Below are positions 21,913 to 39,020 of a DNA stretch of 64,000 nucleotides, in pieces. Below the pieces are notes generated by a model, which made no database searches, was not told where the DNA came from, and saw only the letters and a list, made by a program, of their open reading frames with translations. Source of the DNA: Haloplanus aerogenes. GTDB taxonomy: Archaea > Halobacteriota > Halobacteria > Halobacteriales > Haloferacaceae. Numbering within the stretch: position 1 is the first letter of the stretch; each line of letters starts with the position of its first letter. The position numbers and the translations under genes were made by a program. The stretch is from assembly GCF_003856835.1 (NCBI RefSeq), contig NZ_CP034145.1, positions 1,488,001 to 1,552,000 on the forward strand, read 5' to 3'.

Positions 21913-21926
21913 AAGCCGGTGGAGGG
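21913..21926 (+). repeat. Candidate distal attachment site (copy of tRNA-Thr 3' end)
   Basis: Fourteen bases, AAGCCGGTGGAGGG, are identical and in direct orientation to 42547-42560. The match stops within the T-arm of the tRNA copy, as expected for a duplicated 3' end. Confidence 0.6.
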
Positions 21927-21975
21927 CTACCAAGAATTTCTCATCCAGCCCAGGGATAAAGGGAGGTGTCGGTGC

Positions 21976-22095
21976 GTGACGTGGTGCGATTCGTGCGGCT
22001 CAAAGAGCGACGAGTGCTACCGCTGTAGCGAGTGCGGCCACGACCTCGCCGGGAAAGGCAGTGCGCCCGGCCGCGGGCAAGGAGGTGACCGATGA
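21976..22095 (+). CDS. Small zinc-ribbon protein (39 aa)
   Basis: From a GTG at 21976 the micro-protein has two CxxC-type pairs: CDSCGSKSDECYRCSECGHDL. A GGAGG ribosome-binding site lies at 21962-21966, nine bases before the GTG, which decides the start; the frame is open further upstream but crosses the attachment repeat. Its stop overlaps the next ATG (ATGA, 22092-22095). Tiny double-CxxC proteins are frequent in haloviruses and integrative elements and often act in regulation or nucleic-acid binding. No specific function is known here. Confidence 0.6.
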   Translation: MTWCDSCGSKSDECYRCSECGHDLAGKGSAPGRGQGGDR

Positions 22096-22394
22096 GCGAC
22101 GCCGAGTCCGCCGACGAGTCGACTATCCAGACCGGTGCCGCTGAACGCGCGGACCGCGCCGCTGACGTAACCGAGGTCAACTGGCACGACGTATGGGCCA
22201 TCGCGAAGGCTGCGCCAGGCGAGCCGCTCTCGCCGACGCAGGCGTCGCTGTGTGTCCAAGTGAGCGACCAGTGCCCGCCCGAGACTGACGAGCCCGCACG
22301 CGAGTATCTCGGGCGCGCAGTCGAGAAGGGCCAGCTGAAGCCAGTCTCGAGTGTCGGTGGGGCCGACCTGTTCGTCACGGGGGAGAGTGCATGA
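22092..22394 (+). CDS. Hypothetical protein of the integrated element
   Basis: The product is 100 aa and acidic. A strong GGAGGTGA Shine-Dalgarno (22081-22088) precedes the ATG at 22092, and the gene overlaps both neighbours by four bases. The second half (about 30-95) may form a small helical domain with NWHDVWAIAKAAPGEPLSP, which could be a winged-helix-like fold. No family is recognised. Tight coupling with the genes on either side indicates a single functional unit. Confidence 0.6.
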   Translation: MSDAESADESTIQTGAAERADRAADVTEVNWHDVWAIAKAAPGEPLSPTQASLCVQVSDQCPPETDEPAREYLGRAVEKGQLKPVSSVGGADLFVTGESA

Positions 22395-23023
22395 GCGCCG
22401 ACAACGTGCTCACCGAGGACGACCGGCAGCTCTTGGACCACATCGACGGCCAGATCGACGACGCCGATGACGCCACGGAGTTCGAGGAGATCGCTCGGGA
22501 GCTACGGGATACATTCGCCCGCCATCGCGCCGAGTTCCGCCAGTTCCAACACGAAGTGACCGACCGCCTTGAACGCCTCGAGGACGGTGTCGAGCGCGAC
22601 ACGGCCGAGGAGGACGTGCCCGTCATCGACCGCTACGCGCGGATGAGCGAAGCAGAACGCGAGGACGTACTCTCGACGGCTGAGCACATCGCGGTAACGC
22701 TACACGACAACTGGCGCGACATCGCGTGGAAGCTCGGGGACGCAAACAACCGCAAGGTCGGCGTCGACACGAAGACGAAGGCGAACGCGAAGTACAACCC
22801 GTCGCGGCTCAAGCACCGGCTGAAACAACACATGGATCGCGACCTGCAGTCCACGGAGATCTACCGCGGGCTGCAACGGCTCGCGAAGCTCAGCGGCGGC
22901 GAGGAACACGTCGACGCAGAGACCAGCCGCGTCCAGATCGCCGGCGGCCGCTACGAGTACCGCGAGCGCCGCACCGCGGACAACAAAGAGACGCGCCGTG
23001 TCCTCTGGAGGCGCACAGAATGA
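22391..23023 (+). CDS. Hypothetical protein of the integrated element, helical N-terminus
   Basis: The 210-aa protein starts with a long acidic, coiled-coil-like region (about 8-75), followed by a more basic C-terminal domain (about 110-210) with DTKTKANAKYNPSRLKHRLKQHM, plausible for nucleic-acid binding. It overlaps the previous gene by four bases. Directly downstream is the inverted-repeat block at 23032-23282, so a replication- or partition-related role is possible; that is inference from position only. Confidence 0.6.
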   Translation: MSADNVLTEDDRQLLDHIDGQIDDADDATEFEEIARELRDTFARHRAEFRQFQHEVTDRLERLEDGVERDTAEEDVPVIDRYARMSEAEREDVLSTAEHIAVTLHDNWRDIAWKLGDANNRKVGVDTKTKANAKYNPSRLKHRLKQHMDRDLQSTEIYRGLQRLAKLSGGEEHVDAETSRVQIAGGRYEYRERRTADNKETRRVLWRRTE

Positions 23024-23031
23024 CGCAAACC

Positions 23032-23282
23032 CTCTTACACTGTTGTAAGCGATGTACCCCGAAACCGTGTAAGAGAATTCGCGGTTTCGCCGGGAGGGAC
23101 GGCAAACCGCCACCTCCGACGTATTCCCGGAAATAATTAGAGAAACGGTTGTTGATGCGCAAGGCGCATCAACGCTTACACTCTCTCTTTTCGTTAGTGT
23201 TGGCGCCGCGCCGCTTGTTTGCCAGAAGGAGGGAACGTGACTGACGGCGCGCCGGCTGAAAGTGCTTACAACAGTGTAAGAG
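23032..23282. repeat. Non-coding structured block: 19-bp perfect inverted repeats plus hairpins
   Basis: CTCTTACACTGTTGTAAGC at 23032-23050 is the exact reverse complement of 23264-23282. Each arm is itself palindromic (CTTACA-4-TGTAAG). Further GTGTAAG/CTTACAC half-sites occur at about 23067-23073 and 23175-23181. Between the arms are a hairpin with 7+3 bp arms (23081-23111, GCGGTTT/AAACCGC) and a perfect 10-bp stem with a 3-base loop (23151-23173, GTTGATGCGC/GCGCATCAAC). No convincing gene lies in 23024-23460. Such a density of dyads suits a replication origin or a multi-site operator. Confidence 0.7.
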
Positions 23283-23460
23283 AGTTTGAGTAGGGTCGAC
23301 GACATCTGCGGTCTCCTTGAGGAGACCACCGACTACGTGGCTCGTGCAGCTGATCGCCGTGCCGACGTAACTGGTCTCGTCGCGTCCGACTCGATTCCAT
23401 CGACGATCTCGGCTGATGGTTCTCTCAAACTACTTCCGGTCACAGACACAATGTATGCAT

Positions 23461-23655
23461 ATGAGCACGTCAATTCATGTCTCTGATGAGACAAAAGAGA
23501 AATTGGCGAGGCTGAAGCGTGAAGATGAGAGTTGGGACGAGTTTCTCGACCGACTAGCGAACGAGGGATCTGGGATGAAGGCCGGCGTCTGGAACGGTAC
23601 CGACAAAGCCGAAAAGGCGCACGAGGCAATCAAGCGGTCTCGTGGAAATCGTTGA
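23461..23655 (+). CDS. vapB: VapB-family antitoxin
   Basis: The 64-aa protein starts MSTSIHVSDETKEKLARLKR, the ribbon-helix-helix type N-terminus of haloarchaeal VapB antitoxins, then EDESWDEFLDRLAN and a basic end. VapB binds DNA and neutralises a PIN-domain RNase encoded directly downstream. In this case the downstream toxin is broken. The ATG at 23461 fits the family; the frame is open further upstream, but that part has no family features. Confidence 0.75.
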   Translation: MSTSIHVSDETKEKLARLKREDESWDEFLDRLANEGSGMKAGVWNGTDKAEKAHEAIKRSRGNR

Positions 23656-23819
23656 GTTCGTCGATAAACGATCGGCCTTAGTTACGTCCAGCATCTGTAT
23701 TTACGAAGTTCTCGGCCGGTGAGATGGATCTCATCGGTGCACGTGAAAATGCCTCCGACGCTGACTTCGAGACAGAAGGCCTCAGAAAATTACTCTCTGT
23801 CCGAAAATTCGGTCCGTAG
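23642..23819 (+). pseudogene. vapC: Truncated, frame-broken VapC (PIN-domain) toxin remnant
   Basis: Starting at a GTG overlapping the vapB end, the frame reads VEIVEFVDKRSALVTSSICIYEVLGR and then stops. This resembles the central part of PIN toxins (an alpha/beta segment ending in the conserved acidic position of xYE). A second frame, MDLIGARENASDADFETEG, follows to a TAG at 23817-23819. The N-terminal strand with the first catalytic Asp is missing, and the two parts are in different frames. The toxin is therefore probably inactive while the antitoxin is still intact. Confidence 0.5.
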
Positions 23820-23968
23820 GAGTCCCTCAGAGTCTGGTGTCTGTGCGTGGCAGATCGCATGGCTACTTGCAACCAGTCCAATTTTACGAACGAGGAAGTG
23901 ATCCGAGCAGTCCGAACTTAGCGCTATGAGATTGATTCTATCCCACCCCCGTCGAAAGAGGAGAGTGC

Positions 23969-24676
23969 TTAGGTGAGACGTCGAAGCAGGAGCAGTGCGA
24001 TCAACGCCAGTGCGATGATTCCGACGAGGTAACGGGGGTCCTGCGTGAGTTCGTCCAATCTCGTGTTCCGTACCTGGTTTTCGACCGCCGGCCCATCCGA
24101 AGACGAGTCCATCGAGGCGGCTTCGTCGGATTGGTCGGTGCCGATGCTCCCGCTCTCTCCGTTACCGTCTCCGAGGACGGTCAGGCTCGTGGTTTCGGTC
24201 CCGACGGTGTAACTGTCGCCTCGCTCGTCGCCGAGCGCCGCCACCGTCAGGTCGAGACCGGTCGACCCCGTTCCGTCGGCCCTGAGCGTTACCCTGGCGA
24301 TGGTCACGGTTCCGGTGTCCGCGGTATCCATCAGCGCCGCGACCATCGTCACCGACGAGCCGTCCGCCGCACGTTCCACTCGACTGGTTCTGTCCGACGG
24401 ATTGCCCAGCAGTTCGACATCGGTGATGCTTGCTATACTCGGGTTCGTGAGCGCGACTGTGACATTGTACGCACCGACGCCGCTGTCGGCGTCGTTGACG
24501 ACGACGTCGACCGTCGTGGTTTCGGAGACGCTGACGTCGTCGGCCGACGACAACCGCACTGTCGTGGCTCCTGCCGCACCGACCGTCGCGACAGCGACGA
24601 CGAGCGTCACCAGGACGACGGCCGCGAGTCGCCGCCCGTGTACCGTCAGCAGGTCGCGAACTGTGTGTCCGTTCAT
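23969..24676 (-). CDS. Membrane-anchored cohesin-like surface protein
   Basis: The protein is 235 aa: a signal peptide (about 18-38), one cohesin-like beta-sandwich (about 40-165; VSETTTVDVVVNDADSGVGAYNVTVAL, then VARVTLRADG-type and VAALGDERGDSYTV strands), an acidic Ser-rich linker, and a C-terminal helix YLVGIIALALIALLLLRRL ending in basic residues. It has the layout of an anchoring scaffoldin: one cohesin displayed outside the cell on a membrane stem. The domain is closely similar to the two cohesin-like domains of the next gene. A CGATAC motif abuts its ATG (24677-24682). Confidence 0.7.
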   Translation of the reverse strand: MNGHTVRDLLTVHGRRLAAVVLVTLVVAVATVGAAGATTVRLSSADDVSVSETTTVDVVVNDADSGVGAYNVTVALTNPSIASITDVELLGNPSDRTSRVERAADGSSVTMVAALMDTADTGTVTIARVTLRADGTGSTGLDLTVAALGDERGDSYTVGTETTSLTVLGDGNGESGSIGTDQSDEAASMDSSSDGPAVENQVRNTRLDELTQDPRYLVGIIALALIALLLLRRLT

Positions 24677-24739
24677 GTATCGTGTGGTGGGTTCGTTCGG
24701 GGGTTCGAGCGCGAACGAGAGAGAAAGAGCGGAGCCGAC

Positions 24740-26539
24740 CTAGTTGATCAGCTCGAAGAAGAGCGCCTGGACGTCGACGATGTTGACGCTGCCGTCGTTG
24801 TTGAAGTCGAACTTGTCCGGGTTGTTCTGGATCGCGTCGTCGTTCAGGTTGGCGAACATCGCCTGCACGTCGACGATGTTGAAGTTCCCGTCACCGTTGA
24901 TGTCCTCGTACTGGGAGTCGCTATCGGGGTCGCTCACCGGGTTCACGAAGTTCCCGACGACGACTTCCGTGACGGTGAGCGACGCGCCGGTGGTGCCGGT
25001 GACGGCGTAGTTGTTGCCGTCCTCGTCACCGAGCGCGGCGACCGAGGTAGAGAGGTCGGCCGATCCGTCGTCCACTCCCTCGACAGTGATCGTCGCGACG
25101 GTCACGCTTCCGGTGTCGGCGGTGTTCATCAACGCGGCGTCGATGGTGACCGACGAGCCGTCCGGAGCGATAGTAACCTGGGAGGTCTGTTCCGCCGGGT
25201 TGCCCTGCAACTCGACGTCGGTGATCTCCGCGACGCTCGCGTCGTCCAGCGAGACCGTCGCCGTGTACGCGCCGACGCCACCGTTCGCGTCGTCGACCAC
25301 GAGGTCGAACGTGGTCGTCTGGTCGACGGTGATCTCGCTACTGCTCGGCTGGATGCTCACCGACGTCGACTTCGCGGTGACGTCGAGCGACGCCCCGCTG
25401 GTGCCGGCCACCGTGTAGCTGGTGCCCTGTTCGTTGCCGAGCGCCGAAACCGACGGCGTGAGACCGGTCGAGCCGGCGGCTCCGCCCTGCACCGTAATCG
25501 TCGCGATGGCCACGCTCCCGGTGTCGGCGGTGTTCATCAACGCGGCGTCGATGGTGACCGACGAGCCGTCCGGAGCGATGGCCACGTTCGTCGTCTGTCC
25601 GGCCGGACTTCCCTTCAGGTCGACGTCGCTGATCTGGGCGATACTCGCGTCGTCCAGCGAGACCGTCGCGGAGTACGCGCCGACGCCGCCGTTCGCGTCG
25701 TCGACCACGAGGTCGAACGTGGTCGTGCCGCCGACGAACGTCTGGCTACTCGCCGGCTGTATGCTCACCGACGTCTCCATGTCGGGCGAGGGTTCCGCCT
25801 CGGAGACGGTGACGGTCTGTGTGGCCGTCGCCGTCTCGCTGTCGTTGTCGGTGACGGTGAGTTCGACCGTGTAGGTGCCCGCGCTGTCGTAGGTGTGCGA
25901 GGGCGTGGCGCCGGTCGCGTTCGACCCGTCGCCGAAGTCCCACTCGTAGCTCGCGATCGAACCGTCGGGGTCGCTCGACGCCGAAGCGTCGAAGCTCACC
26001 GACTCGCCGGTCGTCGGATCGGACGGCGAGTAGGTGAACGACGCGCTCGGCGCCGCGTTGTCGGGCGCCGTCTGGACGGTTATCGTCGTGGTCGTGGTGT
26101 CGGTTATCTGGCCGCTCGTGTTCGGATCGATACCGGAGCCCTCGGTGGTGACCGTGTAGTCGCCGGCAGTCGCGTCGCTTGGCACCTCCACGTCGTAGGT
26201 CACCTCGTACGTGCCGTTGGTGAGCCAGATGACTTCGAGCACGTTCGCGGTTCCGGAGGTCGGGTTCGGTGCGCCCCCGTCCGCGTCGGTGATCGAGCCT
26301 TGCCAGCCCGTCGGGAGGAAGGCCTGCATCCCCTGTCCGTTGATGTCGGACCCGGAGATGGTCGTCGTAATCGTCACCGTGTCACCGGGTGCTGCCGTCG
26401 TCGTCGACGGCGAATTCGATACCGAGACGCTCTGTGCCGCGGCCGTCCCCACCGGCGCGTAGCCGAACGCCGAGAGGACGACCGTCAGCGCGACGAGCGT
26501 CACAACCGTTTGTCTGATTCTAGTCTGAGTCGTTGTCAT
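24740..26539 (-). CDS. Secreted scaffold: PKD domain, two cohesin-like domains, C-terminal dockerin
   Basis: From the ATG at 26539 (MTTTQTRIRQTVV) the protein is 599 aa. A signal peptide (to about 35) is followed by a beta-sandwich (about 36-160), a PKD domain (about 165-255; ASFTYSPSDPTTGESVSFDAS and YEWDFGDGS), two nearly identical cohesin-like domains (about 265-395 and 400-530), and a dockerin (about 540-599) with two Ca-binding repeats: DINGDGNFNIVDVQAMF and DFNNDGSVNIVDVQALF. Cohesins bind dockerins in multi-enzyme surface complexes. This protein has both, so it can both receive and dock. It has no membrane anchor of its own. An upstream in-frame ATG would add a non-secretory lead and is rejected. 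Confidence 0.72.
   Translation of the reverse strand: MTTTQTRIRQTVVTLVALTVVLSAFGYAPVGTAAAQSVSVSNSPSTTTAAPGDTVTITTTISGSDINGQGMQAFLPTGWQGSITDADGGAPNPTSGTANVLEVIWLTNGTYEVTYDVEVPSDATAGDYTVTTEGSGIDPNTSGQITDTTTTTITVQTAPDNAAPSASFTYSPSDPTTGESVSFDASASSDPDGSIASYEWDFGDGSNATGATPSHTYDSAGTYTVELTVTDNDSETATATQTVTVSEAEPSPDMETSVSIQPASSQTFVGGTTTFDLVVDDANGGVGAYSATVSLDDASIAQISDVDLKGSPAGQTTNVAIAPDGSSVTIDAALMNTADTGSVAIATITVQGGAAGSTGLTPSVSALGNEQGTSYTVAGTSGASLDVTAKSTSVSIQPSSSEITVDQTTTFDLVVDDANGGVGAYTATVSLDDASVAEITDVELQGNPAEQTSQVTIAPDGSSVTIDAALMNTADTGSVTVATITVEGVDDGSADLSTSVAALGDEDGNNYAVTGTTGASLTVTEVVVGNFVNPVSDPDSDSQYEDINGDGNFNIVDVQAMFANLNDDAIQNNPDKFDFNNDGSVNIVDVQALFFELIN
25103..25171. repeat. 69-bp repeat, copy 1 (inside the scaffold gene)
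   Basis: This 69-base stretch is repeated at 25511-25579 with a single mismatch. It encodes the same part of the two cohesin-like domains. Such DNA-level identity points to recent tandem duplication or gene conversion rather than ancient domain repetition. Confidence 0.85.
25511..25579. repeat. 69-bp repeat, copy 2 (inside the scaffold gene)
   Basis: Second copy of the repeat at 25103-25171, one mismatch (a C for a T near the 5' end). Flanking sequence is also similar but more diverged. Confidence 0.85.
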
Positions 26540-26844
26540 CGATGGTCTCTGTTGGTGTCGTGTTTCGTGTCGTTGGTCGTCTGGCTGTGCAGTCCACGTC
26601 GGAACGGTCCTCGGGTCGGTCACTCGCCCCCGCTCCCACCGAAACGACTGGCTCGTCACCGGGACGACCGGGCGTCACCGGACGAAGCCGAAGTGTATCG
26701 AACGGAACCGTATCCGGGCCGTCATCGGCCGTTCCGCGTCCCCCGACTGCGCCACTACTGGCGACGTGGGCGACCGACTGAATCGCCCGCGAACCGGCGA
26801 CGGTGGGGACTGAGGTGGTCATGGCGCTGTGCTGTGGCCGATGC
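26540..26844. promoter_or_regulatory. Intergenic region upstream of the scaffold gene, with GTATC motifs
   Basis: This 305-bp spacer holds no convincing gene. A GTATCG at 26695-26700 and a GTATCC at 26710-26715 lie 156-176 bases before the scaffold ATG, arranged as GTATCGAAC then CCGTATCCGG. The same GTATCGAAC core occurs in the larger array at 33969-34090, suggesting a common regulator. Confidence 0.4.
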
Positions 26845-29800
26845 TCAGCTACTCCCCTCCGATTCGACGATTTCGATGGCGTTGACCTGCGGATTCTCGA
26901 CCGTTCCCTGGTCGAAGGTCACCGTGATGTTCCCGTCCCCGTCGTCGGTAACGGTGAAGTTCTTCATCGTTCCCGTCTGATGGCCGACGTCGGCGACCGG
27001 GTCGTAGTTGGTCAGCACCTGCGTCCCCTCGATGGAGACGTTGAACTGCCGGTCGCCGGGGTCGCTGGTCCCAGAGAACTGGTTCCCGAGGTAGAGTCGC
27101 ACCTTGACCTCCTGACCGCTGGTCACCGAGAATTCCCAGGTAGAGTTCCCGTAGCGCTCGCAGTCGTAGACCGCGTCGGGCGTCGACGAGGGAACGTCGG
27201 CAGTCGTCGACGTGATGGAGCCGTCGCAGTAGTTACCCGAGGACGACGGCGCGACCGAGACAAGGTACGGCGAACTCGTATCCGTCACGCCGGTCCAGTC
27301 GGGACCGTCGTCGATGGCAGAGAGCGCCGTACTCTCGCCCGCGTTCACGCGGTGCAGCACCTGCGCCTCCGTCGTCGCGCTCGAATTGTAGTCGAGGACG
27401 ACCGTGTTCGAGGTTTCCCCAGTGTTCCCATCGCCGTCCTCGGCGGCGGCGACGAAGTAGTTCAGGTTCGACTCGGAGAGCGTCACCGACGTGGTTGCCT
27501 GGCCGTTCGAGTCGAGCGTGACGCTCTGGTAGCTCACCGCCTCGGCAGTGTCCGCCTCGAAGTCGTCGAGGTCGTAGCCGACGGACGGGGGTTCGCTGGC
27601 CTCGACGTGGATGAGCTGGACTGTCGCGTCCGCCGGCCCGCTGAGGGTCAGCGTCTGTGACGCCGACCCGACGGTCGCCGCCTCATGGGCGGGGAAGTCC
27701 GTCGACTGGAGGCCCACGCCGTCGACGCCGAGCGTCGGCGCGGCGGAGATAGTCGTGTCCCCGGTCGCCTGTGCGCCGCCGGCGCTCCCGTCGCCGAACA
27801 GGTCCGTCGCCTGGGTCGAGCCGTCGGCGTAGCCGAACGTGACGGCACTGCCGGAGAGTTCGAGACCGGAGACCGACCCCGCATCGCCTGTCGTGGACGC
27901 GCCCTTGATCGCCGTCGGGTCGATGTCGACCGAGAACGTGACCGTCTCGCCGGATTCGAAGTCGTCGAACTCGACGGCCATCGCGTCGTAGCCATCGGAG
28001 TCGTTCACGCCGTTGTGGGGCTGGCTGAACACGTCGCCGTCGGCCGTGCTGACGACGCCCGCGCCGTCGCCTGACTCGCTGTCGATCACGAGCCCCTTCG
28101 CCGTGGTGTCACCCGCTGTTCCCTCGGGATCGAACACCGCGTCCGGGATCAGGCTCTCGCTCAGGTCGATCGTCACCGACGAGAGCTGTTGGTCGCCGGT
28201 GTTCGTCACCTCGAAGGAGCCGCTGCCGAAGGTACTCGCGCCGAGTCCGCCGTTCTCGGTAACGGCGATCTCGGCGGATTTGGCGCCGCTACCGCCGCCA
28301 CCGTTGCCGTCGAGTTGTTCGACCTTGATGGCGCTGATCTTGGCGTTGTCGTTGACGACGCTGAAGTCGACGTTCAGCGTGCCGTCGGTCACCTCGACCG
28401 TGTAAGTCTTCTCCGTCGCGGTGGCCGGACCGACCTCGGAGAAGATGTCGTACGACGTGACGACCGTCTGGCCCTCGATCGACGCGTCGAACAGCCGGTC
28501 GTTCTCGTTGGTGCCGTCGGACGGACCGGAGGAGTCCGGCGAGTCCGCCGATGCGACACCCTGGTAGATTTCGGCGAACTGCAGGGTGACCTCGTAGGTG
28601 CCGTTGTCAACCGGGATGTCGTAGCTGAACGAACCGCCGTAGCGTTCGGTCTGGTACAGCGTGTCGTCGTCCGTGCCGGCGACCTCACCGCTGAAGCTGT
28701 AGGTGCTTCCGGTGTCGAAGTTCGTGTCGGCCTGGTAGGTGGTGCCGTCACCGGCGGTGTACTGCGATCCACCGGCGTTGGTCGCGAACACGACCGTGCC
28801 GTTCTGGTCGGGTTCGTCGACGTACACCGCGAACTCTTCGGTGGCCGTCGCCGTGCCGTCGCTGGCCGTGACCGTCACCGTGTGCGTGCCGATAGTGCCG
28901 GATCCGGGCGCGAGGCTGACGGTGCCGCTGCCGTCACCGCCGTCCGTGATCGAGACGAAGCTCGGGCCGCTAACCGAGAGGCTCAGCGCGTCGCCGTCAC
29001 CGTCGGACGCGTTCACCTCGACCGTCGTCGAGCCGCCCTCGGAGACCCCCTGGTCAGTGATGCTCTCGACCGTGGGCGCCGTGTTGTCGCCGCCGCCGCC
29101 CGCTTCGAGTTCCAGAACGACCACGTTCGAGGTGAGCCCCGCGTCCGCGTTCGGCTCGCCCTGAACCGCCGTGAAGTAGTTGAGGCCGGCGTTGTTGTCT
29201 CCGTCCGACGTGGTGTTCGTCAGCGTGACCGGGATGGTCGCCTCGCCGTTGGCGTCGAGCGTCGCCGTGTAGTACTCGACGTCCTCGGCGTCGTTGGCCT
29301 CGTAGGCCTCGATATCGTATCCCGGTTCGCCGTCACCGTCGGCGTCCGGGACGTTCGTGAGCGTCAGTTCGCCCTCCGCGCGGACGAGCGTAACCGTCTC
29401 GCCGGGCTGGCCGGTGACCGTAATGGTCTGGCTGGCCGACGTGACGGTCGCCGCGCTATGACGGGCGTCGAGGACGCCCGAATCGAGCGTGACGCCCTGA
29501 GCTCCGATGGTCGGCGCGGACGCCTCGTCCGCGGTGACGTTGGCGGTGGAGCCGCCAGCACTGCCGTCACCCATCAACTGCGTCGTCTGCGTTGTGCCGT
29601 CCTCGTAGGTAACCGTCACCGTCGAGCCGGCGAGTTCGAGCCCCGAGACGGGGCCGGCCTCCTGCGAGCCGACCGTCGCACCCTTGATGCTCGTCGGGTC
29701 GTTATCCGCCCAGAAGGTGGCCGTCTCGCCGGTGTTGAAGTCGCCGAACTCGACAGTCATCACGTCGTAGCCGTCCGAGTCGTTCACGCCGTTGTGCGGC

Positions 29801-32800
29801 TGCGAGAACGCGTCTCCCGTCCCCGGTTGAGTGAGGATGTTCGTACCGCCGTCGCTGACGATGTTGAGGCCCTCACCGGTCGGGTCGCCCGCTGTCCCCG
29901 CGGGGTCGAACACCATGTCCGGGTAGGACGCGCTACTCAGGTCGAACGACACCGCAGTGATGTTCTTCTCGTCGGTGTTCGTCACCTGATAGGAGCCCTG
30001 TCCGTAGGTCGTCGCTTCGAGCCCCGAGTCGGGCGTGATCTCGACGAGCGCCGACCCGGTTGCGCCGGTATCGCCGTCGCCAATGGTCGCGCCGGTCTGC
30101 CAGAGGTTGACGATCTGCTGGATCTTCTGGAAGTCGATGGTCTGCCCGCCCGTGTTGGGCACCTCGGTGCCGGTCTGCCACCAGTTGATGGCCGTCTGCA
30201 CTTCGGCGAATTCGATCTGCGAGTCGTTGCCGGTCTCGTCCGCCTGCGCAACGGCCTCGTTGATCGTCACGTTACCGTCGCCGGCGTCGGTGTCCTGCAC
30301 AGTCACGTTGACCGTGTCGGTGGACGTGTTCTGCCCGTCGGAGACGTCGACCTCGAACGTGTATGTCGTGTTACCGTTCACGTCCGGTGCGGTGAACGAC
30401 ACCTGCTCGGCGTCGAAGGTATCGAGGAGATCCGAGGGGGTGCCGGCCGTCTGTGTCCAGGTGTATCCGAGGTTGGCATCGTCGCCGTCCGGATCGGTGG
30501 ACCCGCTGGCGTCGAGCGTGACCGTCGTTCCCTCGTCGACCGTCTGGTCCGCGCCCGCGTCGGCAACCGGTGGCTGGTTGTCCGGCGACGTGACGTACTC
30601 GACGTTCAGGTTCGTCCACGTCGCGTCGAAGGTCGACCCCGACTGGTAGGACGTCGAGATGACGCCGATGGCGAGGCCGGTGCCGTCGGACGAGTTCAGC
30701 CAGGACGCCGGAACGGCTCCGGTGCCGACCTCGCTCAACTGTCCTCCGTCGGTGGCGTACGCGGCGGTGACCGCAACCTCGTCCTGTCCGTTGTTCGGTG
30801 CCGGGTCAGTGGTCGGGTCGACCGTTAGCTGGAGGTCCGTGTTCGTGGCCGGGCCCGTGACGTTCGAATCGTCGGGTTGCGCGATATTCTGGAAGCTCCC
30901 GCCGGTCTCCTTGGCGAACTGGGTTCCGCCGGTGCCGCCGTTCGCGGAGACGATGAGCTTCGCGTAGTTGTCCTGGTCGCCGTTACCGATGTAGATCCCC
31001 ATTCCCTGGTAGTTCGAAGGGTTCTCGGGGTAGCCGTTGACCGTCGTGGAGACCGTGAACGGCTCGTCCGGGGCGTCGACGCCGAACTGGAACGCGTACT
31101 GCTGGTCGTTGTTCACCGCGTCACCCGTCGGCACGTTCTCGACCGTCAGAACCTGCGCCGCGCCCCCGACCGTCATCTGGCCGGGGTCGTAGAGGTCCTG
31201 GTAGTCCGACCCGTTCGTCATCAGTCCCGTCCAGACCTGACTATTCGAGCCGAACAGGTTCGTCTCGGAGAACTCTCCCTGAACCGGGAGCGTCGTCGTC
31301 GTCCCGTCGTCCGGGTCGACGGCGAACGGGTCGGACGTGTCGGGCTGACCGTCGTTGTCGTCGTCCGGATCGTTGACGTTCGAGGTGCCGTCACCGTCGA
31401 AGTCGGCCGGCGTCGACGCGGCAGAACACGGGTCGGTGCCCGCGTCTATCTCGTCGGCGTTGTCGTAGCCGTCACCGTCCTCGTCCAGCGACGGGTCGTC
31501 GGCGCCGGAACACGTCTCGCCGGTGCCGCCGTCGTAGTCGTTCGGCTCGAACACCGTGATGTCGCCGCGAGCGGTCCAGACGGTCCCCGGGAAGGGCCCC
31601 TCGTCACCCTGTGCGGCGATGCCGAGCGCGCTCCCGGGCGTGAAGAAGTTGTTCTCCTGGTTCGTCACGCCCGTGCCGGTGGCGTTGAGTTCGACCCGCT
31701 CGACGTTGCTGCCGCCCTCGACGACCAGCAGGTCACCCTGCATCGCGCCGCCGAAGTTGGAGGCGGTGTACTCGTCGATGCCACCGGTCCACCCGAAGGT
31801 GTCGCCGATGGAGTTGTCCTCGGTGGGGTCCTGGTAGTCACACTCGATCGGATTCACCAGCGACGCGGGCACGGGGCTGTTCGACGAGTTGATGTCGAAG
31901 ATGACGTTCCCGTTCTCGTCGTAGATGTCCGCGCCGGTCGGGTTGGCCCGGATGGGCGCGCCGTGTCCGCCGTAGCTTCCCTGCGTCGCGATGTGGAGTT
32001 GATCGCCGGTGCCGTAGCTCCCGTCCTCGTTGGGTGCGTTGGTACACACGCCCGAGGGCCCCTCGTTGACTGGCTGGCCGCCCCAGCCGCCGTTGGGGCC
32101 GTTGTCGATGACGTAGAGCTGGTCGTCCTCGGAGAGGATGAGGTCGTAGGGGTTCCGGTAGCCCGACGAGTACACCTGCACCGGGCCGTCGGCAATCCAC
32201 TTGGCCTGGTTGATGCCGTCGTTCCCGCCGAACGGCAGGTCGTCGCCGTCCGTGGCGTCGTCGTTCTGGATCGTCGGGATGGCGTACAGGAAGTCGACGC
32301 TCGGGTAGTTGCTGTTGTAACTCTGGAGGTTCTTCTCCTGGTAGTTGTTGTCGATCTGTGCGAGGTCTATCGAGAGCGTCGCGCCCGAGAGCGCGTACTC
32401 CGGGGTGTGGCCGAAGTTATCGCCGGGGGCGCCCTTGTTGGTGTGGCCTCCTTGCGCGACGTACAACGTGTTCTCGTCGTCACTCAGGTCGAGGCCGTTC
32501 GTGGCGTGGTTCTCCTCGGAGCGCGGGAGGCCCAGCACCATCACCGTGTGGTCGACACTCGCCAGCGACCCGTCGCTGTTCCAGTCGAACGTCAACCGGG
32601 AGATAGCCCCCGAGTTCGTGTCGGTGTCGTCGTCGTCCGTCCCGACGTCGATGGTCGGGTCACTGGAGGAGACGTACACCACGGGTTGGGTGGCGGTCCC
32701 GCCGACCGTCAGCCCGGTCACTTGCCGGCTGGTTTCGCCAGCGACGTAGTTCCCGTTGTCGTCGTGGTTCGGGATATCCTTGATCGCGCCGATCTGCACC

Positions 32801-33906
32801 TGGTTGGTGACGCTGTAGGAGTTTTCGCCGTTCCGGGTGATGTTCAGCACGTAGATGTCGCCGTCCTGCTGGGCGACGTAGAGCCGGCCGTCGGGGCCGA
32901 ACTCCAGTGCCGTGAGCGAGCCCTGTCCGAAGTTCTGCAGGTCGCTCGACCCGAAGCCGACCGGGGTGTCGCTCGTACCCTCGCCGGTCAGGTCGATCGT
33001 GAGCGGCGAGTTGGCGCCGCTGTGTGTAACTTCGAGCGTGGCCGCGTGTGCCTGCGCCTCGGTCGGCGAGTACGTCACCTGCAGATCGCTCGACTCACCG
33101 GGTGCGATCGTCGTGCTCCCGGAGAAGTTGTGCGAGAACTGTCCTGAATCCGTTCCCGTGATGGCGACATCACTGACGGTGATGTCCGGGTGCGAGGTGT
33201 TGCTCGCGTTCCCGAGGTTCGTCAGCGTCACCGTCTCGGTGGCGGTGTTGCCGGTGACGACGGTGCCAAAGTCCGCGCTCGACGGGGCACCGAGAGTGTC
33301 GGGTTCGGCTGACGTCGAGACGATTTCGATGGCGTTGATCTGCGGATTCTCGGTCACGTGACCGAAGTCGATGTCGATCGTTCCGTCGCTCGTGACGGTG
33401 AACGACTCCATCGCGGCCGTGTCGTCGCCGTAGGTCTCGACGATGTCGAAGTCGTCGAGGACGGTCTGGCCTTCGATGCTGACGTCGAAGACCCTATCAC
33501 CGACGCTGTCGGTGCCACTGTATCCGTCGTAGAAGTACAGCCGCACCTCGACTTGCTGCCCGTCAGGCACGTCGAACTCGTACTGCATCTCCTCGCCGCC
33601 GCTCGGATCCCATCGCTCTGTCTCCCAGATTTGACTGGGTGTCCCGGCTGGGACCGAGCTGTGTATCGTACTCGGTTGGCCGTGGGAGGACGTCTGGTCC
33701 TCTCCGGCGACTTGGTAGTTCTGGAGCGTGTCCCACTGAGCACCGTCCACAGTGAAACTCCCGCCCGCGTTCGCGCGATACAATGGTGTCTCGGCGGCAC
33801 TCGCGACATTGGTGCCGATGGCGACCGTGCCCGCGAACACTGATGTCACCATAAACACCGAAATAAGTACCGCTGTCAGTCGATTTCGATTGTCCGGCAA
33901 GTGCAT
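26845..33906 (-). CDS. Giant secreted multidomain protein (malectin, beta-propeller, Ca-repeats, dockerin-like, cohesin-like)
   Basis: The protein is 2353 aa with a signal peptide (to about 37). In order it shows: malectin-like domain 1 (about 40-200), choice-of-anchor/HYDIN-like Ig (200-305), a beta-propeller resembling PQQ-dependent glucose/sorbosone dehydrogenases (310-795; ALEFGPDGRLYVAQQDGDIYV, SGYRNPYDLIL), thrombospondin type-3-like Ca repeats (about 805-860; DEDGDGYDNADEIDAGTDP), a lectin-like domain (870-1105), REJ/PKD (1112-1210), a dockerin-like pair (about 1228-1275), cohesin-like beta domain (1285-1470), cadherin-like Ig (1605-1700), malectin 2 (1703-1865), a second cohesin-like domain (1870-2070), and malectin 3 (2180-2350). 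There is no C-terminal anchor. A sugar-binding, possibly sugar-oxidising, extracellular role is inferred. Confidence 0.75.
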   Translation of the reverse strand: MHLPDNRNRLTAVLISVFMVTSVFAGTVAIGTNVASAAETPLYRANAGGSFTVDGAQWDTLQNYQVAGEDQTSSHGQPSTIHSSVPAGTPSQIWETERWDPSGGEEMQYEFDVPDGQQVEVRLYFYDGYSGTDSVGDRVFDVSIEGQTVLDDFDIVETYGDDTAAMESFTVTSDGTIDIDFGHVTENPQINAIEIVSTSAEPDTLGAPSSADFGTVVTGNTATETVTLTNLGNASNTSHPDITVSDVAITGTDSGQFSHNFSGSTTIAPGESSDLQVTYSPTEAQAHAATLEVTHSGANSPLTIDLTGEGTSDTPVGFGSSDLQNFGQGSLTALEFGPDGRLYVAQQDGDIYVLNITRNGENSYSVTNQVQIGAIKDIPNHDDNGNYVAGETSRQVTGLTVGGTATQPVVYVSSSDPTIDVGTDDDDTDTNSGAISRLTFDWNSDGSLASVDHTVMVLGLPRSEENHATNGLDLSDDENTLYVAQGGHTNKGAPGDNFGHTPEYALSGATLSIDLAQIDNNYQEKNLQSYNSNYPSVDFLYAIPTIQNDDATDGDDLPFGGNDGINQAKWIADGPVQVYSSGYRNPYDLILSEDDQLYVIDNGPNGGWGGQPVNEGPSGVCTNAPNEDGSYGTGDQLHIATQGSYGGHGAPIRANPTGADIYDENGNVIFDINSSNSPVPASLVNPIECDYQDPTEDNSIGDTFGWTGGIDEYTASNFGGAMQGDLLVVEGGSNVERVELNATGTGVTNQENNFFTPGSALGIAAQGDEGPFPGTVWTARGDITVFEPNDYDGGTGETCSGADDPSLDEDGDGYDNADEIDAGTDPCSAASTPADFDGDGTSNVNDPDDDNDGQPDTSDPFAVDPDDGTTTTLPVQGEFSETNLFGSNSQVWTGLMTNGSDYQDLYDPGQMTVGGAAQVLTVENVPTGDAVNNDQQYAFQFGVDAPDEPFTVSTTVNGYPENPSNYQGMGIYIGNGDQDNYAKLIVSANGGTGGTQFAKETGGSFQNIAQPDDSNVTGPATNTDLQLTVDPTTDPAPNNGQDEVAVTAAYATDGGQLSEVGTGAVPASWLNSSDGTGLAIGVISTSYQSGSTFDATWTNLNVEYVTSPDNQPPVADAGADQTVDEGTTVTLDASGSTDPDGDDANLGYTWTQTAGTPSDLLDTFDAEQVSFTAPDVNGNTTYTFEVDVSDGQNTSTDTVNVTVQDTDAGDGNVTINEAVAQADETGNDSQIEFAEVQTAINWWQTGTEVPNTGGQTIDFQKIQQIVNLWQTGATIGDGDTGATGSALVEITPDSGLEATTYGQGSYQVTNTDEKNITAVSFDLSSASYPDMVFDPAGTAGDPTGEGLNIVSDGGTNILTQPGTGDAFSQPHNGVNDSDGYDVMTVEFGDFNTGETATFWADNDPTSIKGATVGSQEAGPVSGLELAGSTVTVTYEDGTTQTTQLMGDGSAGGSTANVTADEASAPTIGAQGVTLDSGVLDARHSAATVTSASQTITVTGQPGETVTLVRAEGELTLTNVPDADGDGEPGYDIEAYEANDAEDVEYYTATLDANGEATIPVTLTNTTSDGDNNAGLNYFTAVQGEPNADAGLTSNVVVLELEAGGGGDNTAPTVESITDQGVSEGGSTTVEVNASDGDGDALSLSVSGPSFVSITDGGDGSGTVSLAPGSGTIGTHTVTVTASDGTATATEEFAVYVDEPDQNGTVVFATNAGGSQYTAGDGTTYQADTNFDTGSTYSFSGEVAGTDDDTLYQTERYGGSFSYDIPVDNGTYEVTLQFAEIYQGVASADSPDSSGPSDGTNENDRLFDASIEGQTVVTSYDIFSEVGPATATEKTYTVEVTDGTLNVDFSVVNDNAKISAIKVEQLDGNGGGGSGAKSAEIAVTENGGLGASTFGSGSFEVTNTGDQQLSSVTIDLSESLIPDAVFDPEGTAGDTTAKGLVIDSESGDGAGVVSTADGDVFSQPHNGVNDSDGYDAMAVEFDDFESGETVTFSVDIDPTAIKGASTTGDAGSVSGLELSGSAVTFGYADGSTQATDLFGDGSAGGAQATGDTTISAAPTLGVDGVGLQSTDFPAHEAATVGSASQTLTLSGPADATVQLIHVEASEPPSVGYDLDDFEADTAEAVSYQSVTLDSNGQATTSVTLSESNLNYFVAAAEDGDGNTGETSNTVVLDYNSSATTEAQVLHRVNAGESTALSAIDDGPDWTGVTDTSSPYLVSVAPSSSGNYCDGSITSTTADVPSSTPDAVYDCERYGNSTWEFSVTSGQEVKVRLYLGNQFSGTSDPGDRQFNVSIEGTQVLTNYDPVADVGHQTGTMKNFTVTDDGDGNITVTFDQGTVENPQVNAIEIVESEGSS

Positions 33907-34197
33907 TCACCTACTATGGGAAAGGACCACACACCCTCCGGACGTAGTTATTAGCTCAGTGATATGTGGTATCGATTCGGTGTGAATCGGAATCGTTTCG
34001 ATACCGGCCAGTATCGGTTCGATATCCGGTTCCGCTCGCCCGGTATCGAACCAGTACGAGGACGAACCGGGCAGTATCGTTCGCGTATCGGCAGTTTTCC
34101 CATCAGTTCGTCTCTCGGCTCTACGTCACCCGATTAACAGCCACTTAGTGCCGTTCTGGTCGCTGGCGGCTGGCTCCAACACGGGACGAACCACGGC
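33907..34197. promoter_or_regulatory. Regulatory region of the giant surface gene
   Basis: This 291-bp spacer separates the giant gene and the wHTH gene, whose stop codon is at 34198. A frame from 33966 is basic and motif-free and is not taken as a gene. The promoter of the giant gene should lie at about 33930-33950, where TAGTTATTAGC (33943-33953) is the best TATA candidate. The GTATCG array lies just upstream of this. Confidence 0.5.
33969..34090. promoter_or_regulatory. Array of six GTATCG/CGATAC motifs
   Basis: Exact GTATCG (or its complement) occurs at 33969-33974, 33999-34004, 34011-34016, 34043-34048, 34074-34079 and 34085-34090, plus near-matches such as CGATAT at 34019-34024. Several are embedded in longer partly dyad units (GTATCGGTTCGATATCC; GGTATCGAACC). 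About 0.06 copies would be expected by chance in 122 bases. It looks like a multi-site operator for the surface protein gene 63 bases away. Confidence 0.65.
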
Positions 34198-34713
34198 CTA
34201 CTTCGTCAACACGTAGCCTACGGCGAGGAGGCTGAGACCGAACCCGACGCCCTGTACGAAGCCGACAGCTGGCACCAACGTCCGCACGGAGAACCAGCTG
34301 CCGAGAAACAGTCCGATTCCGAACGCGGACAAAGCCACGTACAGGACATTCGAGGTGCGAGACTGCTCGTCCGCCCCGTTCAGACGCTGCTGGATTTCGG
34401 ATCCCTGGTCGGTGATTTCGATTCTATCCCATCCGTTCTCCGACCGAATCAGCCCCGCCCGTTCCATCAGCGGGAGGTGATTCTGGTAGAGGCCGGTGTA
34501 TACGCTCTTACGCTGGTCGTAGGAGATTTCGCCGACCGACTGGTCGTTCTCCAGACTGGCGACCCGCTCCGCCAGCGTTCCGATGTCGATAGGCTCCTCC
34601 TGCTGGGTCAAGAGCTCGAGGACGAAGCGCCGTCGCTCGTTGCCGAGTACCTGATAGACGATGTCCGAGAGGGGCGAGTCCACCTCGGCACTCGCCCGTT
34701 CGGATCGAGTCAT
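34198..34713 (-). CDS. Winged-helix protein with C-terminal membrane helices (DUF7344-like)
   Basis: From the ATG at 34713 the protein is 171 aa. A wHTH domain covers about 10-105 (LSDIVYQVLGNERRRFVLELLTQ, then DQRKSVYTGLYQNHLPLMERAGLI), followed by two hydrophobic helices (about 118-140 and 147-168). This is a common haloarchaeal arrangement found next to surface-structure and exopolymer genes, where it probably works as a membrane-tethered regulator. It is transcribed towards the giant surface gene on the same strand. The frame remains open upstream to about 35007, but the added part is basic and unconserved in appearance. Confidence 0.75.
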   Translation of the reverse strand: MTRSERASAEVDSPLSDIVYQVLGNERRRFVLELLTQQEEPIDIGTLAERVASLENDQSVGEISYDQRKSVYTGLYQNHLPLMERAGLIRSENGWDRIEITDQGSEIQQRLNGADEQSRTSNVLYVALSAFGIGLFLGSWFSVRTLVPAVGFVQGVGFGLSLLAVGYVLTK

Positions 34714-35257
34714 CGGTCGGGTCCCGGTCGGACGCATCCCGGCGACCACTCTGCGAATCGGCGAGCCGTCCGACTGCGCCCAGCGCTCGGCCACACGTCG
34801 AGTCGGCCGATTCGGCACCCGCTGTAGTGACCGGCGTCCGTGGATTCCCTTGGTTGATCCCCTGTCTCCCCAAACAGGCTCGACCGCCCCAATGGTCGTC
34901 CCAGCACCCCCCGTGATGGCACCTGATTCACGACGAGACTCTGCCACTGGCGAGTGTCGTCGTTCGTCGATATTGCCCCTTGTCGACCAATCATGCCAAA
35001 TCATCAATATTTCTGAGGCCTGATTACCCTATCTACTACCCATCTCCGCATCGTCTGCAAATCGCTGCGTGAAACACGGTGTGCACACGGAGTGAGTGCG
35101 GGAGGCGGTGTTGCATACAGTGGTCTATTTGACAGAAATTGGTGATTACATCACACTGTGCACGTGACTATCTAGGTGATCGTTCGCGAGTTTTCCTACC
35201 AAGCTGTCATTTAATTGGACAATATTGATACCCTCGGAATGTGTGGGGGTTACACAC
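34714..35257. promoter_or_regulatory. Intergenic region with dyads upstream of two regulators
   Basis: No confident gene in 544 bases. Dyads visible: GTGTGCACAC at 35079-35088, GTGAT-3-ATCAC at 35142-35154, and TGTGTG-7-CACACA at 35241-35259, the last overlapping the start codon of the next gene. AT content rises sharply after about 35100. The arrangement suggests autoregulation of the downstream HTH gene. Confidence 0.45.
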
Positions 35258-36301
35258 ATGGTTGACTCTCGGGAGTTAATGGAACTCGCTCTCACGCACG
35301 AGGGGGTTCTGAACTCTCTGCTCTCCGAACCGAAAACGAAACCTGAACTCGTAGCGGAATGTGATGTCTCACGAACGACAATCGACCGATGGGTCAATCA
35401 ACTTCAGGCGACGATGCTCATGCACCGTCCGGGAAAGCGGTTCGAACTAACACTATTCGGACAAATATACGTATTGAAATTCAACCGCATTCGACAGCAG
35501 TTGTCTCACTTGGTCAAACTGCGCGAGCCGCTACAGCAGCTGTCGGACGAGATCGACATCGACCCCGAGGTGCTGGAAGGGGCGAACATTTCGTTCTACG
35601 AGGGATTGGCCCCAGAGCTCGCCGAGAAGCTGTTGACTCGCCCCGGCCGGGTTCGTCTGATCGCCCCGCGTATTACCTGTGTCTTCTCCGTCCTCTTCTT
35701 CCAAACCCCTGATCCGGACCTGGAATTCGAGATTCTCATTGCGGAAGAGGTGGCCTCTCAGCTCGACACCTACCTCACGAACCAACAACTGTCGTTGCTC
35801 TCGATAGCCTCCGTCCGCATCTACGAGATGTACGATTCATCCCCGTTCTGCCTCGCACTCGTCGAACGCGATGAAAGGCAAGTGGTGTACTTCATTTTCG
35901 AGGGATCACAGACCGGCGTGGGTGTCATCGAAAGCGGGGCCAAGGAAGCCCTCGCGTGGGGGGAAGAACTCTACGACGAATACCGCGACCGAGCCACCGA
36001 ACACGAATGGCACTCTCCAAGCCAGCCGTTCGGAGCCCTTCCGAATCGGGAGCAGTGTATCATCCTCGTTGAATTGATGGCCGGAAACGTCCAACACGAA
36101 ACCGACGTGATGCGGCGAGTAACTTCCGACGAGGCGGACAACTCGTGTCGTAGCGAGTCACTCTGTGCGTTGGACAAGGCGGATTACATCGAGTGGAACC
36201 GCGAAACGGGAGCCATTTCGACTGGGCCGAACTTCGACGACATTCGACCGATACTCGAGTTGATGATGAACAATCCCGAGAAATTCCCGTCAGATTGGTA
36301 G
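35258..36301 (+). CDS. HTH transcriptional regulator with FilR1-like C-terminal domain
   Basis: The 347-aa protein has an N-terminal wHTH (about 10-75; KPELVAECDVSRTTIDRWVNQL) and a long C-terminal effector domain similar to FilR1/DUF1724 regulators (about 110-260; ALVERDERQVVYFIFEGSQTGVGVIES). A further C-terminal segment (260-347) has another wHTH-like look (PFGALPNREQCIILVELMAG). ATG at 35258 is favoured because the family begins with SRELMELALTHEGVL-like sequence and an inverted repeat abuts it. GC is lower than that of the flanking chromosome, indicating acquisition with the element. Confidence 0.8.
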   Translation: MVDSRELMELALTHEGVLNSLLSEPKTKPELVAECDVSRTTIDRWVNQLQATMLMHRPGKRFELTLFGQIYVLKFNRIRQQLSHLVKLREPLQQLSDEIDIDPEVLEGANISFYEGLAPELAEKLLTRPGRVRLIAPRITCVFSVLFFQTPDPDLEFEILIAEEVASQLDTYLTNQQLSLLSIASVRIYEMYDSSPFCLALVERDERQVVYFIFEGSQTGVGVIESGAKEALAWGEELYDEYRDRATEHEWHSPSQPFGALPNREQCIILVELMAGNVQHETDVMRRVTSDEADNSCRSESLCALDKADYIEWNRETGAISTGPNFDDIRPILELMMNNPEKFPSDW

Positions 36302-36543
36302 CGACGCGGACAGGGGCGAGCCCACCGAGATCCTCCAACACGTGCGAATCTCCGTTTCGATTCCCGAGGTAGATCCGCCACTGCTCGCTCCCATCCTCCG
36401 GTGCGAGCCCATGAATCCCGTAACTGGACTGTAGGTAGACCGTGTCAGGGGTAGACAACGGGAGCAGCGAGAACCGATCTGACGAAGTCCGGGCCCAGTG
36501 AGAAACCGGTCGGGAACGATCTCATCAAGTCGCTCGTGGAGAT
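36290..36543 (-). pseudogene. Beta-propeller (PQQ-like) repeat remnant
   Basis: On the minus strand one frame (about 36500 to 36300) reads SLLPLSTPDTVYLQSSYGIHG then LAPEDGSEQWRIYLGNRNGD, the rhythm of one PQQ-type propeller blade. It has no start of its own, and the frame continues antisense into the HTH gene. It is probably a leftover fragment; confidence is low and the borders are approximate. Confidence 0.25.
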
Positions 36544-36861
36544 TCACTCGCCATCGGCCTCGATATCATTCAGTATCGACTCGATCCGATCGGTGAGGTC
36601 GACCGTCGTCGGCTGGGGATCCTTGGACAAGATGTGGTCGATGTGTCAAGCACGAGTACCCAGGGCAGCCAACGTCCCGGTTGCGGCGAGGATTGCCTCG
36701 CGATGCTCGGTGTCGTCGAGCGTCTCGGCGTGGCTGTTGATGACGTCGAGTTGGTTTCGGAGATTGTGGCGGAGGATTCGATTGAGGATCTCGAGTCGGG
36801 TGAGGAACTGTTGCAGATCGTAGTGCATCGTCGCAACCGACTCGTGCCCTATATTCAGCAC
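36544..36861 (-). pseudogene. Histidine kinase remnant with internal TGA
   Basis: A 71-residue frame starts at 36861 and contains LEILNRILRHNLRNQLDVINSHAETLDD, the phospho-acceptor (HisKA) helix typical of haloarchaeal sensor kinases, with the H-box RHNLRN. The frame meets TGA at 36646-36648 where relatives would have a residue, then continues HIDHILSKDPQPTTVDLTDRI to a second stop at 36544-36546. Both the sensor domain and the ATPase domain are missing. It is a decayed fragment, and it begins exactly at a repeated sequence (36836-36862). Confidence 0.6.
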
Positions 36862-36862
36862 G
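36836..36862 (+). repeat. 27-bp dispersed repeat, copy A
   Basis: Matches 39021-39047 at 23 of 27 positions. A shorter related copy lies inverted at 37921-37940. The shared core is TATTCAGCA[C/T]G. It could be the end of an insertion sequence or a small mobile repeat that framed the intervening low-GC genes. Confidence 0.5.
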
Positions 36863-36904
36863 GTTTTGAGAAAATACCACCTACCAAGGATTCAACGACG
36901 CCGT

Positions 36905-37060: not shown

Positions 37061-37199
37061 CGTCGGGAATGGGGGTGCGAGTGAATTAGGTTTGGCGACG
37101 ACACTCGTCACAGGTACTGTTCCACACAAAGTTTACACCAGACGATAGCGCTACAGCAAGTTGGAAGGGAACCTGTCACACGCTCTCTTCCTTCCCCTG

Positions 37200-39002: not shown

Positions 39003-39020
39003 TCTGGAATCTCTTCGGTG

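What the first reader, a model, noticed from the sequence alone, without database searches (positions are those of the whole stretch)
23032..23282. Perfect 19-bp inverted repeats with nested hairpins: candidate replication origin or multi-operator
The outer arms (23032-23050 and 23264-23282) are exact reverse complements and each is itself a dyad of GTGTAAG half-sites. Two more half-sites and two long hairpins lie between them, one with a perfect 10-bp stem. The block directly follows a gene with a basic, possibly DNA-binding C-terminus. Such density of dyads in 250 bases is unlike ordinary intergenic DNA here and suits an element origin.
Basis: partly seen in the sequence, partly recalled or inferred. 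Interest (0 to 1): 0.6.

Follow-up and report, generated by a model that had tools for sequence, protein, structure and literature searches.

The report
Candidate replication origin beside small DNA-binding gene
Inside a 20.6-kb piece of foreign DNA inserted in a salt-loving archaeon's chromosome, a small DNA-binding-protein gene is followed by a conserved block of mirror-image DNA sites that also follows the same gene in related viruses and other haloarchaeal elements, and that is most likely the place where such elements start copying their DNA.

Summary
The repeats are real. The 19-bp arms are the longest exact inverted repeat (within 400 bp) in the 64-kb window and are reached in 0 of 2000 shuffles of the stretch. 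The block is not a local oddity. The 210-aa gene upstream belongs to an unnamed family with an N-terminal coiled coil and a predicted C-terminal winged helix. The same block follows its homologues at 30-53% protein identity: two inverted 16-bp dyads 208-231 bp apart, single half-sites, hairpins and a GC-rich core. A search by DNA site alone found 40 viral contigs. The 3 with paired inverted sites are the only 3 that encode the protein; one was new. In 382 haloarchaeal genomes the site occurs only as block arms. The module sits at one end of a 20.6-kb element inserted in tRNA-Thr(CGT), flanked by a 14-bp repeat. Records carrying the family include a tailed virus, a virus-like plasmid and a 4.5-kb plasmid; most lack Orc/Cdc6, all lack Rep-Arvir, most lack ParA. 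I favour a plasmid/provirus replication origin bound by its own initiator (0.6). Replication and binding are inferred, not shown. Partition or regulation remain possible.

The parts
21913..42560 (.). Integrated element (20,648 bp) in the 3' end of tRNA-Thr(CGT)
   Evidence: 14-bp direct repeat at both ends. In five related species (L130-L134) tRNA-Thr is directly followed by sequence that here lies left of 21913, beyond the element.
21913..21926 (+). attL-like 14-bp repeat (copy of the tRNA-Thr 3' end)
42547..42560 (+). attR-like 14-bp repeat, within or adjoining the tRNA-Thr(CGT) gene 42548-42620 (-)
42305..42505 (-). N-terminal remnant of a haloarchaeal tyrosine integrase
   Evidence: 67-aa query matches the start of longer ORFs in other genomes of the family (15 of 60 genomes including its own; best foreign matches 70-77% identity, ORFs 434-529 aa; one read). 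The rest of the gene was not seen in any of the three frames. No Pfam match for the fragment itself.
21976..22095 (+). Small zinc-ribbon-like ORF (CxxC motifs) upstream of the module; start uncertain
   Evidence: ORF; start inferred by eye; no Pfam match over cut-off
22092..22394 (+). Small hypothetical protein (100 aa), overlaps the next gene
22391..23023 (+). 210-aa protein P0001: coiled coil + predicted winged helix; candidate initiator
23034..23049 (+). Outer dyad S1, CTTACACTGTTGTAAG
23061..23088 (.). Hairpin, 7-bp stem GAAACCG/CGGTTTC
23067..23073 (+). Half-site GTGTAAG; its GTAAG lies 35 bp after S1 start (same offset, 34-35, in L006, L096, L050; lost in L005)
23129..23146 (.). AT-rich stretch, candidate unwinding region
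   Evidence: sequence; AT-rich or mixed at the same place in the homologues
23151..23173 (.). Central hairpin, perfect 10-bp stem, 3-nt loop
23175..23181 (-). Central half-site CTTACAC (TCTCTTACAC in L006 and L096)
23202..23212 (.). GC-rich core GGCGCCGCGCC, in the place of GGGCCCGGCCC of the homologues, about 10 bp further from the half-site than in most
23265..23280 (-). Outer dyad S2, inverted copy of S1

Best explanation
The block is the replication origin of a haloarchaeal plasmid/provirus-type element, now integrated in tRNA-Thr, and the 210-aa protein just upstream is its dedicated initiator (origin-binding protein). Proposed working: the protein dimerises through its coiled coil; its winged helices bind the two inverted outer dyads and the single half-sites between them; this folds the roughly 230-bp block into a loop or wrapped complex; the AT-rich stretch or hairpin next to the central half-site opens; and host replication proteins, or an element-encoded primase/helicase where present, load there. 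SHOWN by computation: the repeats, the element and its att ends, the gene-plus-block association across divergent homologues, and the near restriction of the sites to the block. INFERRED: binding, melting, replication. In this genome the integrase is truncated, so the element probably cannot excise by itself and the origin is probably dormant (inference).
For: (1) Gene and block travel together. The paired 16-bp dyads follow the homologues in L005 (53% identity), L006, L096 and L050/L051; a diverged form follows L008, and different dyads (GTAACA..TGTTAC type) follow L009 and the tailed virus HCTV-2 gp86. (2) Site-only scan of viral contigs: 40 contigs, 3 with two inverted sites, and tblastn of all 40 loci found the protein in exactly those 3; two were already known, one (L096) was new. 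(3) Site in 382 whole genomes: 3 genomes, block arms only, 0 reversed-pattern controls. (4) Spacing: S1 to central half-site is 129, 129, 141, 141 or 152 bp; half-site to GC core 15-17 bp in four of five. (5) More distant family members: 10 of 17 loci have a dyad 120-200 bp after the stop, against 1.1 expected from shuffles (maximum 5 in 300 runs) and 1 to 4 of 17 in the 130-bp intervals before 130 and beyond 260. (6) Replicons with family members mostly lack other known initiators: Orc/Cdc6 absent in 9 of 10 records, Rep-Arvir in 10 of 10; the 4,491-bp plasmid NZ_CP084094 shows no recognisable Rep among the seven other ORFs scanned. (7) The nearest Cdc6 gene in the own genome is over 1.2 Mb away. 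(8) Layout resembles the experimentally tested SNJ2 origin, 156-197 nt downstream of its rep gene (PMC13107129, sections 25, 26 and 28 read).
Against: No binding or replication data. GC skew does not mark the site in five of six circular replicons, although skew is weak in archaea (PMC3119063, passages). Some elements carry other replication genes: an Orc/Cdc6 about 1 kb beyond the block in L015, two Cdc6 matches on NZ_CP034942, a NrS-1-polymerase-like protein on NZ_CP085334, an annotated P4-type primase on PL47. Two truncated homologues, L007 and L010, lack the block. The protein has no recognised initiator or nickase domain. In 7 of 17 distant loci no dyad was found at 120-200 bp.
Confidence: 0.6

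Rival explanations
1. Partition (centromere-like) site: the protein is a centromere-binding protein and the dyads are the segregation site of the element.
For: A wHTH protein with clustered palindromes next to its own gene is also the layout of many centromere-binding proteins (recalled). ParA genes occur in L015, L017, PL47 and NZ_CP034942.
Against: ParA (PF13614) over the cut-off in only 2 of 11 records that carry the family, none on the 4.5-kb plasmid. Where ParA is present in L015 and L017 a small gene of its own lies next to it, apart from the family gene and block. A homologue sits in the tailed virus HCTV-2.
Confidence: 0.15
2. Transcriptional control: the protein is a repressor or activator and the dyads are its operators, or part of a terminator/regulatory region for a downstream gene.
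For: Winged-helix proteins are commonly regulators; the model's structural neighbours include RosR and Fur. L006 has a third dyad about 40 bp further on, before a small gene.
Against: The block lies downstream of the gene, not before its promoter; the downstream genes seen differ between elements. The searched pattern occurs only within the block in L015 (14 kb), L016 (15 kb) and L051 (20 kb). Internal layout and spacing are kept, which simple operators do not need.
Confidence: 0.15
3. Recombination site (resolution, inversion or excision) made of two inverted core sites.
For: Each arm has the two-arms-plus-short-spacer shape of a tyrosine-recombinase core site (recalled shape).
Against: The protein has no recombinase match. 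The element's att sites are elsewhere, at the tRNA. The interior has the same orientation relative to the gene in all six blocks aligned, so no inversion is seen. Of five records with the family searched for Phage_integrase, four have no match.
Confidence: 0.05

Closest known systems
SNJ2 RepSNJ2 (Rep-Arvir, DUF7845) and its downstream hairpin origin (PMC13107129)
   Same: Haloarchaeal integrative element; gene directly followed by a noncoding origin with an inverted repeat and a hairpin about 150-200 nt after the stop; replication genes at an end of the integrated element; wHTH in the protein.
   Different: P0001 is 210 aa, has no DUF7845/Rep_trans match and no known nicking residue; its block has two inverted outer dyads and a GC core. 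Nothing seen here points to the rolling-circle mode.
Orc1/Cdc6-dependent haloarchaeal origins
   Same: Inverted repeats around an AT-rich stretch beside an initiator gene.
   Different: No Cdc6 gene within 1.2 Mb of the block; 9 of 10 family-bearing records have none; the dyad CTTACAnnnnTGTAAG is not the ORB motif as I recall it (ORB not scanned for).
Iteron-type plasmid origins (recalled)
   Same: wHTH initiator next to clustered sites plus AT-rich DNA; RctB domains appear among weak structural neighbours.
   Different: Sites are two inverted dyads and single half-sites, not a row of direct iterons; no sequence relation found; structural Z below 6.
Partition loci with wHTH centromere-binding proteins (recalled)
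   Same: DNA-binding gene adjacent to palindromic sites.
   Different: No ParA over cut-off in 9 of 11 records.

Membership tests
Rep-Arvir (DUF7845) replicon | Initiator with N-terminal DUF7845/TBP-like nickase domain | tested here: not met
   No such match in P0001 by Pfam; PF25227 in 0 of 10 family-bearing records.
Rep-Arvir (DUF7845) replicon | Hairpin plus inverted repeat downstream of the rep gene | tested here: met
   Dyads and hairpins within 270 bp downstream; compared with the published layout, not by sequence.
Orc1/Cdc6 origin | orc/cdc6 gene next to the origin | tested here: not met
   Nearest PF09079 match over 1.2 Mb away. One homologous element does have one about 1 kb away (L015).
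Orc1/Cdc6 origin | ORB motifs | not tested
   Only compared from memory.
Plasmid/provirus origin with own initiator (functional class) | Gene and cis site co-conserved and co-localised | tested here: met
Plasmid/provirus origin with own initiator (functional class) | Module suffices for autonomous replication | not testable with these tools
   Needs an assay; the gene-poor 4.5-kb plasmid is only suggestive.
Plasmid/provirus origin with own initiator (functional class) | Skew inflection at the site | tested here: inconclusive
   Six circular replicons; only the 4.5-kb plasmid has an extreme near the site (the maximum, 130 bp away).
Type I partition system | ParA ATPase encoded with the DNA-binding protein | tested here: not met
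   PF13614 over cut-off in 2 of 11 records; in L015 and L017 ParA is present but apart from the gene.
Winged-helix DNA-binding proteins | wHTH fold | tested here: inconclusive
   Model mean pLDDT 75 from 4 sequences; C-terminal half aligns to wHTH chains at Z up to 5.8; Foldseek has no match at E<=0.001.

The most novel reading that the evidence does not exclude
A previously undescribed class of haloarchaeal replicon: a small coiled-coil/winged-helix initiator without nickase, AAA+ or Orc domains, acting on a two-ended looped origin placed directly after its own gene, and shared by tailed viruses, virus-like plasmids, small plasmids and integrated elements of haloarchaea.
Probability: 0.4. Interest if true: 0.75.

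Novelty: new variant of a known kind. Interest (0 to 1): 0.55.

Why it matters
How many haloarchaeal plasmids and tailed viruses start replication is unknown; several records here have no recognised initiator. If right, this family supplies one, gives a compact module of about 0.9 kb for shuttle vectors, and makes the replication of viruses such as HCTV-2 directly testable. It would also be a further haloarchaeal example, beside SNJ2, of an origin placed directly behind its initiator gene, with an unrelated protein.

Tried and rejected
GC skew as an origin test: uninformative. Rfam: only the tRNA. Single-protein scans of genome contigs and viral contigs: nothing. Foldseek against PDB and viral models: no match at E<=0.001; the VIA-align list shows winged helices at middling Z only, so no family is claimed from it. 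I first took the distant relatives for pL6/betapleolipovirus F3 replicases; reading the papers showed F3 is 567-581 aa with another domain, so this was dropped. A tRNA suspected near 21863 is not predicted by ARAGORN; the att copy is at 21913-21926. The central half-site is in a hairpin loop in L005 and L050 but not clearly in L006 or L008, so a nick-site claim was not made. Integrase remnant: no match in the plasmid collection, found only in genomes. Of 39 of 391 genomes with a profile match, 15 have E<1e-9; some weaker ones align only the N-terminal coiled coil. For the dyad test I used 24 loci (7 close, 17 distant) and left out L007/L025 and L010/L028 (truncated), L039, L045-L049 and hits without loci; some of the 17 are related (60-85% identity).

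Full report
OBSERVATION. The repeats are as described. Arms 23032-23050 and 23264-23282 are exact reverse complements. They are the longest exact inverted repeat with start-to-start distance up to 400 bp in the 64-kb window (next 15 bp), and 0 of 2000 dinucleotide shuffles of 23024-23291 reached 19 bp (maximum 16). Each arm is a dyad CTTACA-nnnn-TGTAAG. Half-sites lie at 23067 and 23175 and a perfect 10-bp stem at 23151-23173. The genome has no second copy.

SETTING. The window is haloarchaeal chromosome (C1:1488001-1552000 of the assembly). A 14-bp direct repeat at 21913-21926 and 42547-42560 matches the 3' end of tRNA-Thr(CGT) at 42548-42620. In five related species whose loci I fetched, tRNA-Thr(CGT) is followed directly by sequence that here continues to the left of 21913. 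So 21913-42560 (20,648 bp) is an integrated element. Next to the right end lies an N-terminal integrase remnant (about 42305-42505, -). Its relatives are long ORFs in other genomes of the family (15 of 60 genomes, own included), and the rest of the gene was not seen. The module of interest starts right after the left end.

THE PROTEIN. P0001 (210 aa) has no Pfam match over cut-off. A single-sequence search finds it in 11 of 391 haloarchaeal genomes; a five-sequence profile in 39 of 391, 15 of them at E<1e-9. A model from four sequences (mean pLDDT 75) has a long N-terminal helix (25-75) and a C-terminal winged-helix-like half. VIA-align puts that half on winged-helix chains at Z up to 5.8, while Foldseek has nothing at E<=0.001 in PDB or viral models. 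The fold is therefore likely but not certain.

THE BLOCK IS CONSERVED. Behind homologues of 30-53% identity in L005, L006, L096 and L050/L051 lies the same block: dyad S1 close behind the stop, a half-site 34-35 bp after it (lost in L005), a central half-site 129-152 bp after S1, GGGCCCGGCCC (or GCGCCCGGCCC) 15-17 bp further, and inverted dyad S2 208-231 bp after S1. The window has GGCGCCGCGCC about 10 bp further out. L008 has a diverged form. L009 and HCTV-2 gp86 have other dyads (GTAACAGCGTTGTTAC, CGTAACGCTGTTGTTACG) downstream. Truncated copies L007 and L010 have no block.

INDEPENDENT CHECKS. A scan of viral contigs with the site alone (CTCTTACANNGTYGTAAG) gave 40 contigs. Three had two inverted sites, and tblastn of all 40 loci with six family proteins hit exactly these three. 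L098 and L099 are the already known contigs; L096 is new. In 382 whole genomes the pattern CTTACRACRNTGTAAG(N0-1)R occurs in 3, all matches being block arms, with 0 matches of the reversed control pattern; those three genomes were already known from the protein. Within the element stretches already fetched the pattern lies only in the block; L006 has a third dyad of slightly different sequence about 40 bp beyond S2. In 17 more distant family loci, 10 have a dyad 120-200 bp after the stop, against 1.1 expected by shuffling (maximum 5 in 300) and 1 to 4 of 17 in the 130-bp intervals before 130 and beyond 260. Some of these loci are related to each other.

WHAT CARRIES IT. Family members sit on a virus-like 58-kb plasmid with a tail tube gene, the tailed virus HCTV-2, two IMG/VR contigs, a third with a tyrosine integrase transcribed away from the module, and plasmids from 4.5 kb upward. 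Cdc6 is missing in 9 of 10 records, DUF7845 in 10 of 10, ParA over cut-off in 9 of 11. The 4,491-bp plasmid has, beside the family gene, only small ORFs; the seven scanned gave a CopG-type match and otherwise nothing over cut-off. Against exclusivity: L015 has Orc/Cdc6 and ParA, NZ_CP034942 has two Cdc6 matches, NZ_CP085334 a NrS-1-polymerase-like protein, and PL47 an annotated P4-type primase.

MECHANISM. A probably dimeric winged-helix protein facing two inverted dyads and half-sites at kept spacing, beside AT-rich DNA and hairpins, placed behind its own gene on autonomous elements that mostly lack another known initiator, is best read as an initiator with its origin. Spacing differences of 11-12 bp between S1 and the central half-site (129, 141, 152) would suit helical phasing; this is an inference from five blocks. 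Binding, opening and loading are inferred. Partition and regulation are the rivals that an assay must exclude; recombination is unlikely because the interior never changes orientation in six blocks.

AGAINST WHAT IS KNOWN. The closest published case is SNJ2: rep gene followed by an essential hairpin (176-197 nt) and inverted repeat (156-166 nt) (PMC13107129; abstract, passages and sections 25, 26 and 28 read). The layout is alike, the protein is not. pL6 plasmids carry F3 replicases of 567-581 aa (PMC5974055 and PMC11431627, passages). PMC4441112 and PMC3119063 were read in passages only. My literature searches listed no paper that, from titles and starts of abstracts, describes this small protein family or its block; subscription journals are mostly not held, so this is weak evidence of novelty.

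Noticed in passing
window 21913-42560: A 20.6-kb element integrated in tRNA-Thr(CGT), carrying very large predicted ORFs on the minus strand (2353 aa at 26845-33906; 639 aa at 24740-26659, whose end looks dockerin-like by eye) and a truncated integrase.
   Followed up: partly
window 23464-23655: VapB-type antitoxin reading frame (DNA 73-76% identical to annotated vapB genes of three haloarchaeal plasmids) with only a stub of a partner behind it (by eye).
   Followed up: no
L007 (G135, same genus) and L010 (G279): Decayed fragments of the P0001 gene without the block, suggesting repeated past integrations.
   Followed up: no
L035, L036, L037, L038 downstream of the family gene: In distant family members a larger inverted repeat (about 10-bp arms, 20-30-nt loop) at roughly 175-240 bp downstream, after a dyad in three of the four; resembles the SNJ2 bind-plus-hairpin layout.
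   Followed up: partly
L054 (NZ_CP084094, 4,491 bp): Very small complete Halomicrobium plasmid with no recognisable replication gene apart from the family member; a good test replicon.
   Followed up: partly
L006 1207-1222 (-): A third dyad about 40 bp beyond S2, before a small gene; two dyads only in the other close blocks.
   Followed up: no
L070 17179-18261 (-) (NZ_CP100358): The virus-like plasmid encodes a DpdA-type deoxypurine DNA modification protein (E 1e-25).
   Followed up: no
L055 12721-15270 (-) (NZ_CP085334): 849-aa protein with a NrS-1 polymerase HBD domain (E 1.5e-30): possible plasmid primase-polymerase.
   Followed up: no
L096 3827-4435 (-): HNH endonuclease gene directly upstream of the family gene.
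   Followed up: no
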